DNA of 39,974 nt, taken from the NCBI GenBank assembly GCA_903902745.1, contig CAIUWA010000041.1:1-39974 (forward strand), read 5' to 3'. Below the pieces are notes generated by a model that worked only from the letters and a program-made list of their open reading frames with translations, ran no database searches and was not told where the DNA came from. The DNA is from an uncultured Opitutia bacterium. GTDB taxonomy: Bacteria > Verrucomicrobiota > Verrucomicrobiia > Opitutales > Opitutaceae. Positions 1,087-4,019 of the stretch are shown here, one piece after another. Within the stretch, counting starts at the first letter, position 1, and each line of letters starts with the position of its first letter. The position numbers and the translations under genes were made by a program.

Positions 1087-1985
1087 ATGAGACCTTTGCA
1101 GATAATTCCTCGCCTGTCGCAGGGGTTCGCAGTCTTCAGCCTTAGTGCGATCCTGTTGCTACTTGCCAGCGCGTCGCCGGCTGAAGCCCAGACCGTTATC
1201 GTCTCGGATGGCTTCAGCGGTACCAATGGGGCGTCGCTCAACGGGCGCACGCCGGATGGCGTCAATCTCCCCGGTCGGAGCTATGTGGTGACCAGTTACC
1301 TGGACTACGTCGGCGCGCAGCCGGCCATATACACGGGTAGCGGCGCCCCGCTGCCGTCCGCGACCGCGGGATTCAATGCGGTGGTCTTCTATGATCTTTC
1401 CAGCAACGGCGGTTACACCAAGCCCTCGTTGCTGACGCTCAGCATCGATATCCAGATCAATACTGCGGCCAATAACGTCACGCCGCGCGGGATCGGTCTC
1501 GGATTTTATAGCGTGGCCCGGGCGAATAATTCCGAGACGGAGGCGAGTGACCATTTCACGGGGCTCACCTTCCGCCCCGATGGCGCCCTGAACCTGGTGG
1601 TCGACGGTGTGGTGCAGGCCGCGACGGTCGCCCCGTTTGGCGGCTTCTCGCCCGCCAATTTCTACACGCTCACCTATTCGGTCAACACGGTGAGTGGCAG
1701 CATCACGGGGGTGAAGTTGAACGGGACCGATTACACGGGCGTATTTGGCGGTGCGACCACGGCGGGGATCTTCACCGCGAGCCTGACCAATCTGGCGGGA
1801 TTTTATGGCAGCACGGCTGTGAGTACCTCCTACACGTCCGTCGTGGATAATTTCAAGATTTCGACCGTCCCGGAACCCGGCGTGGTGGAGCTGCTGTTTA
1901 TCGGTCTGGGCTCGTGGCTCGGCATTTCCTCCGTCGCCAGCGACGGAGCCGGTCCGCGGCAGCCGGCCATTCAAAGGCCCTTTGA
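1087..1985 (+). CDS. PEP-CTERM sorting-domain exported protein, C-terminal tail out of frame
   Basis: The chosen ATG at 1087 gives a clear signal peptide: a basic start, a hydrophobic run ([17 protein letters not shown]) and an AEAQ cleavage region. The body is rich in Thr, Ser, Gly and Asn and looks like a LamG/jelly-roll type extracellular domain; no enzyme motif is seen. Near 1870-1925 the C-terminal sorting signal appears: Val-Pro-Glu-Pro followed by a hydrophobic stretch. The basic tail that should follow is absent in this frame, which instead runs on to a stop at 2256 inside the convergent tgt gene. In the neighbouring frame, from about 1929, the bases read [11 protein letters not shown] and stop at 1983-1985, exactly the expected tail. 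One missing base between about 1920 and 1932 explains this. It could be a sequencing error, a real mutation or programmed slippage. PEP-CTERM proteins are processed by an exosortase, which is not in the window. Confidence 0.8.
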
Positions 1986-4019
1986 GGCAGGCGCAAATTG
2001 CGGATGGCGCTCGATGCGGTCTTCGGCCTCGGTCCGCGCTTCCGACGATAACGCCGCCGGGACTTTTGCGCTGCTCCGTCGCCAGCGTGTCAGCCAGTCG
2101 TCGCCCAGCAGGCGAGGCGCGCGCGGATGGGCCGCCGCACTCTCGGCCCGCGTGAAGGCGATCGTGGTTTCCGCCTTCGGGCCGGTGCCGACGCCTTCAC
2201 CCACGAAAAACCCCGCGCGCAGCAGCGCCACCCGCGCGGCGGTTGACGCGGAATAGGTGTAGAGCTCGGCGGGCTTCGGGGCGCAGGCCTGAAAAATCCG
2301 CGCAAAGGTCTCGGCCGTCCACAGCGCCGAATCCGTCTTGAAGGAAAACGGGTCGTAGAAGATCAGGTCTGGCGGCGGTGCCCCCGCGAAGCACTCGAGA
2401 AAATCGCCCTGCGCCAGCTCCCAGCGCATTCCGCCTGAGCGGTGCGTCCAATGGCCGTGGGCGAGGATCGCCTGCGGCGCGGCGTGGCGGACATGCGGGA
2501 AATAACCCGCGTTCCTGGCCGCCAGCCGCAAGGGATCGAGGTCGCACTCGAAGCTCACGAGCCGCAGCGCCCGCAAGGCGCCCGTGCCTGCCTCCGCCTG
2601 GCAGCGCTCGAAGCACCGAACCACCGCCATTGCGTTCGTCGCCGCGCCCAGGCCCACGTCCCAGACGACAAGCTCTTCCCCCGGCACGCCGGCCGCCGTC
2701 AGCCGCCCCGCGAGGAACGATTGCTCGACATAGAGCCGGTTCGCCTCGTCCTCCGGCCGGTTCACCGAGTGCATGACCTCGCCTGAGCTGATCTGGCGGA
2801 CGCTGTTGAACCCACCTGTCCCGGCGGGGTGGATCTCGTAGTCCCCACACCGCGGATAGTGGAAAATTCGCGCCGGCTTCGGGGTGACACTCGGGTTCTC
2901 CGAGTCGGTGCGGGCGAGTTCCGTCCGCATGCGCTCGTAGAACGGCAGAAAGGCATCCTGCAGGATGCTCGCCCGCATCTCGCGCATCAGGCCGTGATAA
3001 AACGCCAGGTTGTGAATCGACAGCAGATGCCAGCCGAGCAGCTCGTCGGCCTTCACCAGGTGGTGGAGGTAGGCCCGCGAATGCTCCCGGCACGCCTGGC
3101 AGCCGCACTGGGGATCGAGCGGCTCCTCCGAAAACTTATGTACCGAGCGCCGGAGGTGCAGCTTGCCCTGTGACGTGAAGACCGTGCCGCGCTGCGCCAG
3201 CTGCGAGGGGATGATGCAGTCGAACAGGTCGACACCCCGGTGCACCGCCTCGAGGAGATCCAGCGGCGTGCCCACCCCCATCAGGTAGCGCGGGAGGTTT
3301 TTTGGCAGGTGTTCGGTAACCATCCCGGTGAACTCATAGCGCTCGGCGGGCGTTTCCCCGACGGCGAGTCCCCCGATGGCCAGCCCGTCGAAGGGCAGCC
3401 CGCGCAAAAATTCCGCGCTTTTTTTCCGAAGATCGGGGTGACAGGCCCCCTGCACGATGCCGAACAACGCCTGCAGCGAATCGCCGCGCGCCGCCAGGGA
3501 ACGCAACGCCCAGCGGTGGGTGAGCTCCATGGCCGCCTCCGCCTCGGCATGGGGCGCGGTTGAGGCGATGCACTGGTCGAGCACCATCATGATGTCGCTG
3601 CCGATCGCCCGCTGCATGCCAATGCTCGTTTCCGGCGAGAGGAGATGCACGTTGCCATCCACGTAGCTCTGGAACGTGGCGCCTTCCTCCTTCATCCGCC
3701 GCGAACCCGGCAGGGAAAAAATCTGAAAGCCCCCCGAGTCGGTCAGCACGGGGCCATCCCAGTTCATGAAGCGGTGAATGCCGCCGACCTTCCGGAAAAC
3801 CTCCGGGCCGGGGCGCAGCAGCAGATGGAACGTATTGGCGAGGAGAACGCGGGAGCCCGTGGCCTTGAGCGTGTGGATCGTCTGGCCCTTGACGGTGGCC
3901 TGCGTGCCGACCGGCATGAACAAAGGCGTTTGCACTTCCCCGTGCAGGGTCTGGAAGCGGGCCGCGCGGGCGCGGGAGCCGGTGGCTTCTTGTTCGAGCG
4001 TGAAATTGAGGCGGGACAT
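1971..4019 (-). CDS. tgt: tRNA-guanine(34) transglycosylase fused to an MnmD/MnmC-like methyltransferase
   Basis: Residue numbers here count from an in-frame ATG at 4049; the likely start is the ATG at 4017-4019, ten codons later, where the normal Tgt N-terminus begins. Residues about 11-380 are a full bacterial Tgt, which swaps guanine 34 for preQ1 in GUN-anticodon tRNAs: the DSGGFQ box with D104, the FDC nucleophile D277, and zinc ligands C315, C317, C320 and H346 with HSRAYLHH between. The usual PTRNARNG loop reads PSQLAQRG. After a short linker, residues about 395-640 form a second enzyme: a SAM-binding block [11 protein letters not shown] (464-474), an acidic strand ending SFECD, YDPFS (565-569), ALWT..TF (576-582), LYTYSAS (597-602) and a late [16 protein letters not shown]. 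This matches the MnmC methyltransferase part (MnmD), which makes mnm5U34. The last 50 residues look unstructured. The 3' end overlaps the PEP-CTERM gene tail by 15 bases. Confidence 0.93.

What the first reader, a model, noticed from the sequence alone, without database searches (positions are those of the whole stretch)
1971..4019. Tgt and an MnmD/MnmC-type methyltransferase fused in one protein
One open frame carries a complete Tgt (nucleophile D277, zinc ligands C315, C317, C320, H346) and, after about 15 linker residues, a methyltransferase with the MnmC/MnmD marks ([25 protein letters not shown] near the end). Both act at tRNA position 34, but on different anticodons (Q in GUN; mnm5U in others). 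I know of no described enzyme with this pairing. The fusion may channel one tRNA pool or couple two modifications. The Tgt loop PSQLAQRG, where E. coli has PTRNARNG, could reflect a changed tRNA contact.
Basis: partly seen in the sequence, partly recalled or inferred. Interest (0 to 1): 0.75.

Follow-up and report, generated by a model that had tools for sequence, protein, structure and literature searches.

The report
Fused tRNA-guanine exchanger and amine methyltransferase
One gene joins two RNA-modifying enzymes, and the same joined gene, with matching changes in both working parts, recurs in many uncultured bacteria, so it may make a tRNA building block that nobody has yet described.

Summary
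The fusion is real, on the minus strand (1974-4019, 682 aa). It is a conserved two-domain family, not an assembly slip: 22 of 387 genomes of the phylum carry it, and 75 of the 80 named contigs kept carry it complete, some labelled as other phyla.

The N half is a second Tgt; a normal Tgt lies elsewhere in the same genome. It keeps the catalytic, preQ1-pocket and zinc residues checked (93 of 93 unique rows) but has lost both arginines of the PTRxxR loop in 89 of 93. 37 of 37 normal Tgts keep them.

The C half has the MnmC2/MnmD fold (3vyw, Z 23.7) and its key Glu, Asp and Lys. Its active-site loop differs: Asp in 80 of 88 fused rows where 37 of 37 other members have Asn.

Five genomes hold the fusion beside another candidate mnm5U methylase. 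In 4 of 5 Riflebacteria-labelled contigs it lies beside a queuosine-precursor transporter gene.

Best reading: it inserts preQ1 into RNA with altered recognition and N-methylates the preQ1 aminomethyl group (inferred, 0.4). mnm5U methylation is not excluded.

The parts
1974..4019 (-). complete fused gene, 682 aa (stop codon 1971-1973)
   Evidence: orthologues over full length
2919..3974 (-). Tgt domain (residues 16-367)
   Evidence: Pfam TGT 472.1 bits, NCBIfam TIGR00430 432.5 bits
3738..3740 (-). D94 = Z. mobilis D102, catalytic Asp
   Evidence: 93 of 93 unique fused rows; place
3219..3221 (-). D267 = Z. mobilis D280, nucleophile
   Evidence: 93 of 93 unique fused rows; place
3573..3575 (-). 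Q149 = Z. mobilis E157, replaced (Q in 89 of 93 fused rows)
   Evidence: E in 15 of 15 normal Tgts; one further normal row has Y (L247) and T. maritima has H
3186..3209 (-). altered loop PSQLAQRG (normal PTRxxRxG); Q273 and Q276 replace R286 and R289
3012..3107 (-). zinc site C305, C307, C310, H336
   Evidence: 93 of 93 unique fused rows; place
2868..2894 (-). flexible linker, about residues 376-384
   Evidence: pLDDT under 50 at model residues 375-383, the model starting at residue 2
1974..2849 (-). MnmC2-fold methyltransferase domain plus C-terminal helices (residues 391-682)
2319..2354 (-). methyltransferase active-site loop [12 protein letters not shown] (D556 = ecMnmC D178; D563 replaces a conserved Asn)

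Best explanation
A bifunctional RNA-modifying enzyme. The Tgt half, a paralogue of the cell's normal Tgt, exchanges a guanine in a tRNA-like stem-loop for preQ1 (7-aminomethyl-7-deazaguanine), but reads the bases around it differently from the normal UGU-reading enzyme. The C half, a diverged MnmD-type methyltransferase, then uses SAM to methylate the free aminomethyl nitrogen of the preQ1 just installed, the same chemistry MnmD does on nm5U. The product would be 7-(methylaminomethyl)-7-deazaguanosine, probably an end product that QueA could not turn into Q. Shown from sequence: the checked catalytic residues of both halves are kept and both halves are under purifying selection; loops near both active sites differ from those of the relatives throughout one clade; a queuosine-precursor transporter gene sits next to the gene in one lineage. 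Inferred: that Tgt2 still uses preQ1, which RNA it acts on, and that the methyl goes to preQ1.
For: preQ1-pocket residues (D156, C158, Q203, G230-LAV233, E235) and catalytic D102/D280 kept in 93 of 93 unique fused rows. R286 absent in 93 of 93, R289 in 89 of 93; 37 of 37 normal Tgts keep both, Z. mobilis and T. maritima included. MT model matches MnmC2 best (Z 23.7), and the Glu101, Asp178 and Lys236 equivalents are kept. The Asn of its loop is Asp in 80 of 88 fused rows, against Asn in 37 of 37 other members. The fusion coexists with another candidate mnm5U methylase in 5 genomes: G102, G298 (MnmM family), G403, G409 (MnmD-like sister with the ordinary loop), G395 (MnmD). A queuosine-precursor transporter gene is divergent and adjacent in 4 of 5 Riflebacteria-labelled contigs. 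QueA present in 47 of 49 fusion-type genomes. dN/dS 0.01-0.11 for the Tgt half (12 of 13 pairs scored) and 0.07-0.39 for the MT half (11 of 13), four of the pairs with dS over 1.
Against: No direct evidence of substrate or product. In most fusion genomes searched, the MT is the only strong Methyltransf_30 match, so it could be their mnm5U methylase. One genus (G187, G190, G199) has a decayed MT domain and also has the MnmM family, as if MnmM made the MT redundant; yet G102 and G298 keep both. MnmG is matched in 55 of 56 genomes (51 over the cut-off), so nm5U can exist there. The transporter link is one lineage, and the fifth Riflebacteria-labelled contig (L123) lacks it. No preQ1 riboswitch near the gene in 33 sources. 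None of 20 further neighbours scanned had a Q-pathway family among the matches shown. Three genomes hold a sister methyltransferase with the ordinary loop and no fused Tgt. Four fused rows keep R289 and 4 of 88 keep the Asn.
Confidence: 0.4

Rival explanations
1. One reading: a dual wobble enzyme that makes preQ1-34 in some tRNAs and methylates nm5U34 to mnm5U34 in others, the fusion only coupling expression or tRNA binding.
For: MT fold is MnmC2 and keeps the residues that PMC3648344 calls critical. In most fusion genomes searched no other strong Methyltransf_30 match is found. MnmG is matched in 55 of 56 genomes. The MT decayed in one genus that has the MnmM family.
Against: Changed active-site loop (Asp for Asn in 80 of 88 rows). 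Another candidate mnm5U methylase in 5 fusion genomes. The 16 of 25 family members without the fusion had no Methyltransf_30 match at all, so the family can do without one. The Tgt half lost the Arg pair of the PTRxxR loop and is a second copy.
Confidence: 0.22
2. The two activities are right but the target is not an anticodon: Tgt2 exchanges a guanine elsewhere (another tRNA position, rRNA, mRNA or DNA) and the MT methylates the product or a neighbour.
For: Both loop arginines are gone in 89 of 93 rows. Of three stem contacts that PMC13416341 names for E. coli, the place of K285 (301) is mostly Gln or His here (44 and 34 of 93). PMC10103133 (passages) reports E. coli Tgt acting on DNA substrates in vitro.
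Against: The place of R320 (336) is Lys in 93 of 93 and that of K292 (308, mapping uncertain) Lys or Arg in 93 of 93. The Tgt half is 45% identical to the normal enzyme, closer than position-15 or DNA enzymes would be (recalled).
Confidence: 0.15
3. Tgt2 no longer exchanges bases; it is an RNA-holding platform that presents tRNA to the methyltransferase.
For: Loss of R286/R289 could abolish exchange. A separate normal Tgt is found in 32 of 34 fusion genomes, so the exchange could be left to it.
Against: Checked catalytic and zinc residues are invariant in 93 of 93 rows, and the Tgt half has lower dN/dS than the MT half in each of the 11 pairs where both were scored. In G187/G190/G199 the Tgt half is kept while the MT half has decayed.
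Confidence: 0.08
4. Assembly or annotation artefact.
For: The window lies in a 52-contig assembly.
Against: Found complete in 22 of 387 genomes of the phylum and in 75 of the 80 named contigs kept, some in single-contig genomes (G088, G140, G274).
Confidence: 0.01

Closest known systems
Bacterial Tgt (TIGR00430, Z. mobilis / E. coli TGT)
   Same: Family profile, catalytic Asp pair, preQ1-pocket residues, zinc site
   Different: Separate clade (100/100); R286 and R289 replaced by Gln in most rows; E157 replaced by Gln in most rows; carries a C-terminal methyltransferase
MnmD / MnmC2 (Methyltransf_30; A. aeolicus 3vyw, E. coli MnmC)
   Same: Fold (Z 23.7 and 22.5), SAM-binding Glu and Asp, RNA-binding Lys
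   Different: Below the NCBIfam MnmC2 cut-off; last Gly of motif I is Ala; active-site loop D-P-F-S-x-K-T-D instead of D-x-F-[AS]-P-x-x-N; fused to Tgt
Radical-SAM (TIGR01212, YtqA-like) + Methyltransf_30 fusion in other families of the phylum (partner tested in L054/G055 and in G002)
   Same: A Methyltransf_30 domain joined behind another enzyme
   Different: Other partner, ordinary MnmD-type loop, different part of the tree
Tgt fused to transporters (PMC11130926, passages read)
   Same: Tgt with a Q-pathway partner in one chain
   Different: Partner there is a transporter, not a methyltransferase

Membership tests
Bacterial Tgt (EC 2.4.2.29) | score above the curated Q_tRNA_tgt cut-off | tested here: met
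   432.5 bits against 306.75
Bacterial Tgt (EC 2.4.2.29) | catalytic D102 and D280, preQ1 pocket residues | tested here: met
   93 of 93 unique fused rows
Bacterial Tgt (EC 2.4.2.29) | zinc site Cys3His | tested here: met
   93 of 93 unique fused rows; note that some normal Tgts of the Opitutaceae lack it
Bacterial Tgt (EC 2.4.2.29) | PTRxxR loop arginines (their role in reading the base after G34 is recalled; PMC5395182, passage, only places Arg286 at a cavity linking the ribose-34/phosphate-35 pockets of the twisted dimer) | tested here: not met
   R286 absent in 93 of 93, R289 absent in 89 of 93
Bacterial Tgt (EC 2.4.2.29) | inserts preQ1 at G34 of GUN tRNAs | not testable with these tools
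   needs enzyme assay
MnmD / MnmC2 | Pfam Methyltransf_30 above cut-off | tested here: met
   44.0 bits against 22
MnmD / MnmC2 | NCBIfam MnmC2 (NF033855) above cut-off | tested here: not met
   63.3 bits against 136
MnmD / MnmC2 | MnmC2 fold | tested here: met
   3vyw Z 23.7, rmsd 2.8, 240 aligned; profile of 39 fused and 5 sister domains E 4e-16; single sequence E 0.0011
MnmD / MnmC2 | SAM/catalytic Glu101, Asp178, RNA-binding Lys236 (PMC3648344, sections 12 and 16) | tested here: met
MnmD / MnmC2 | active-site loop with conserved Asn (and mostly Pro) after Asp178 | tested here: not met
   Asp in place of Asn in 80 of 88 fused rows (Asn in 4); Asn in 37 of 37 others
MnmD / MnmC2 | methylates nm5U34 | not testable with these tools
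   needs enzyme assay

The most novel reading that the evidence does not exclude
A new tRNA (or RNA) nucleoside, N-methyl-preQ1, is made in one protein by exchange of guanine for preQ1 followed by N-methylation of its aminomethyl group, in RNAs outside the GUN set. The gene has spread between phyla beside the ordinary queuosine pathway.
Probability: 0.33. Interest if true: 0.82.

Novelty: new variant of a known kind. Interest (0 to 1): 0.62.

Why it matters
Wobble-base modifications tune decoding. A second Tgt with an altered loop near its active site, joined to an amine methyltransferase with an altered active-site loop, predicts a 7-deazaguanine nucleoside for which my search found no paper, and an RNA target set beyond the four GUN tRNAs. 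The prediction is directly testable by mass spectrometry of tRNA. It also warns annotators: the profiles name the two halves plain Tgt and an MnmC/MnmD-type methyltransferase.

Tried and rejected
Assembly error: rejected. preQ1 riboswitch near the gene: none in 16 loci with labels other than Opitutae or Verrucomicrobia nor in the window plus 16 loci, at gathering thresholds; some of these loci hold little upstream DNA. tRNA genes in the window: none. Gene neighbourhood: of the 14 largest neighbour clusters printed for the 80 named loci (3 to 8 loci each), only the Riflebacteria transporter looked Q-related; the others I judged by eye and did not identify. 20 neighbours scanned gave no Q-pathway family among the matches shown. 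10 neighbours of the standalone sister methyltransferase: nothing telling. MnmG as a discriminator: matched in 55 of 56, so uninformative. Mobile spread: 20 phage records match, none over 80% of the query, the ten listed only over the Tgt half; plasmids have no match to the MT domain. The full-length model has pTM 0.57 with a loose linker, so nothing is claimed on domain arrangement.

Traps. In one search many genomes outside the family show two matches; I take the second there to be mostly the Methyltransf_30 part of another fusion, not a second Tgt (inference). The 288 and 387 draws overlap. The 80 named loci were found with peptide patterns taken from fused proteins, so 80 of 80 says nothing about how often the domain stands alone; 324 relatives were reported and 80 kept. 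MAG names are noisy (one is labelled Klebsiella pneumoniae); the multi-phylum claim rests on several labels and on the normal Tgts of some of those genomes clustering apart. The 100 fused rows hold 7 duplicates; counts were redone on 93. Dropped rows: L109, L146, L148, L178 (contig ends), L115 (broken frame), L028 among normal Tgts, L070 among the comparison methyltransferases (fragment), and L014-L016 from the methyltransferase counts (decayed). The comparison groups were labelled by frame length and place; the radical-SAM partner was tested in two genomes only and the FAD half of the MnmC-length rows was not tested. E. coli stem contacts were mapped by offset; PMC13416341 gives Arg as the Z. 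mobilis counterpart of K292, which my position 308 (Ser) is not, so that mapping is uncertain.

Full report
OBSERVATION. The frame named in the finding is on the minus strand: ATG at 4019, last codon ends at 1974, 682 residues. Pfam places TGT at residues 16-367 (472.1 bits) and Methyltransf_30 at 534-621 (44.0 bits). NCBIfam gives Q_tRNA_tgt 432.5 bits (cut-off 306.75) and MnmC2 NF033855 63.3 bits, below its cut-off of 136. By my count the nucleophile is D267 and the zinc ligands are C305, C307, C310 and H336.

IT IS A FAMILY. In the window's own genome a separate, normal Tgt lies on another contig, 45% identical. Of 288 genomes drawn from the phylum, 12 hold a match over both domains and 3 more (one genus) a match ending at about residue 555. 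A second, overlapping draw of 387 genomes searched with Methyltransf_30 gave 120 with a match, of which 22 are this fusion. Within the window's own family 9 of 25 genomes of the first draw have it, patchily even within genera. A scan of named contigs with the methyltransferase alignment reported 324 relatives and kept 80; all 80 match, 75 as complete fusions, 4 cut by a contig end and 1 with a broken frame. Labels are mostly Opitutae or Verrucomicrobia, but include Deltaproteobacteria, Riflebacteria, Spirochaetes and Binatia; such labels are noisy. In a tree of 43 fused and 37 normal Tgt domains the fused rows form one group (100/100). Rows with other-phylum labels lie inside a fused subclade (98/97) that also holds Opitutae rows, while normal Tgts from some of the same genomes group apart (midpoint root, some long branches). 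This fits one origin and later transfer (inference).

THE TGT HALF. On Z. mobilis numbering (sequence), 93 of 93 unique fused rows keep D102, D156, C158, Q203, G230-L231-A232-V233, E235, M260, D280 and the zinc ligands. PMC3660597 (passages) ties the Leu231/Ala232 peptide and Glu235 to preQ1 binding, so the preQ1 pocket looks ordinary. What changed is the loop after the nucleophile: normal PTRxxR, here mostly P[STG]QLAQRG. R286 is absent in 93 of 93 and R289 in 89 of 93; both are present in 37 of 37 normal Tgts examined, Z. mobilis and T. maritima included. E157 is Gln in 89 of 93. That this Arg pair reads the base after G34 is recalled from the Z. mobilis-RNA structure; I found no held paper that says it. 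PMC5395182 (passage) places Arg286 at a cavity that links the ribose-34/phosphate-35 pockets of a twisted dimer. Of three stem contacts named for E. coli in PMC13416341 (section 7), the place of R320 (336) is Lys in 93 of 93; that of K292 (308 by offset, uncertain) is Lys or Arg in 93 of 93; that of K285 (301) is mostly Gln or His, 44 and 34 of 93. Position 304 is Arg in 93 of 93. A stem-loop substrate is plausible, with different base reading (inference).

THE METHYLTRANSFERASE HALF. The single sequence matches 3vyw (MnmC2) only at E 0.0011. A profile of 44 domains, 39 fused and 5 standalone sisters, matches it at E 4e-16. The AlphaFold2 model built on the same alignment (mean pLDDT 93.4) matches 3vyw at Z 23.7 and E. 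coli MnmC at 22.5; spermidine synthases follow at 17.7. PMC3648344 (sections 12 and 16) names Glu-101 and Asp-178 as critical and lists Lys-236 as RNA-binding; the three are kept. The loop after Asp178 differs from every other group examined. It reads D-P-F-S-x-K-T-D in most fused rows, with Asp in place of the Asn in 80 of 88 (Asn in 4). The Asn is there in 37 of 37 others: 24 long frames of the radical-SAM fusion type, 5 of MnmC length, 5 standalone sisters and 3 small MnmD-like. In the domain tree the fused rows form one group (93/98), next to the 5 standalone sisters (97/85), both far from the rest (long branches, so placement is cautious).

GENOMIC CONTEXT. 32 of 34 fusion genomes show a normal Tgt as well, two of them as fragments at contig ends; G401 and G403 do not. 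QueA is matched in 47 of 49 fusion-type genomes, the misses being the window's own genome and G401. MnmG is matched in 55 of 56 genomes, 51 over the cut-off. Five fusion genomes carry another candidate mnm5U methylase: G102 and G298 (PF06962/MnmM family), G403 and G409 (standalone sister with the ordinary loop) and G395 (MnmD). PF06962 was searched only in 54 genomes of the phylum. In 4 of 5 Riflebacteria-labelled contigs (L147, L149, L154, L158, not L123) a queuosine-precursor transporter gene lies divergently beside the fused gene. PMC11130926 (passages) calls that transporter family the known preQ1/preQ0 transporter and reports it fused with bacterial Tgt.

SELECTION. In 13 pairs that I chose, dN/dS was 0.01-0.11 for the Tgt half (12 scored) and 0.07-0.39 for the methyltransferase half (11 scored, two of them from the decayed genus); four of the pairs have dS over 1 and are near saturation. 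In G187, G190 and G199 the methyltransferase half ends early, without the catalytic loop, while the Tgt half is intact. This suggests that the Tgt half is useful alone. Those genomes also have the MnmM family, which fits the mnm5U rival.

MECHANISM. MnmD puts a methyl group on the primary amine of an aminomethyl side chain (PMC3648344). preQ1, which Tgt inserts, carries the same kind of group (PMC3660597). A methyltransferase of this kind tied to a Tgt, with its active-site loop altered, most simply methylates the preQ1 that its partner has just placed. My estimates: fusion real 0.99; Tgt half active 0.85; altered RNA reading 0.7; methyltransferase active 0.85; methyl to preQ1 0.4. The chief rival, mnm5U methylation, stands at 0.22.

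LITERATURE. Searches for the pairing and for N-methyl-preQ1 in the open-licence PubMed Central library listed no paper that its title or abstract start showed to be on either; most listed papers were not opened, and most subscription papers are not held.

VERDICT. The methyltransferase is not filed as MnmD because two tested features were not met. The Tgt half belongs to bacterial Tgt by profile and catalytic residues, but with the loop changed. I rate it a new variant of a known kind, with a testable prediction of a new nucleoside.

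Noticed in passing
L002:1435-2577(-), also L097, L100, L256-L259: The normal Tgts of the window's genome and its close relatives have lost two or three of the three zinc-binding cysteines while keeping the His: 7 of 7 rows of that clade, G060 without the fusion among them, plus L099.
   Followed up: partly
L054-L078 (mostly frames of about 560-660 aa): In other families of the phylum the Methyltransf_30 domain is fused behind a TIGR01212 radical-SAM (YtqA/MnmL-like) enzyme, a possible one-protein route to mnm5U; the partner was tested in two genomes.
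   Followed up: partly
window genome G000: No QueA match although 54 of 56 searched genomes have one; a gap in the assembly or a real loss.
   Followed up: no
G392, G396, G397, G398, G401: Two MnmG-like genes lie about 2 kb apart on one contig in these Riflebacteria-labelled genomes.
   Followed up: no
window 8645-8899(+): Weak Methyltransf_30 match (25.2 bits) inside a 937-aa frame that looks by eye like a membrane spermidine-synthase-like protein.
   Followed up: no
L081-L083, L241, L242: Standalone sister methyltransferase with the ordinary MnmD-type loop; three of these genomes have no fused Tgt.
   Followed up: partly
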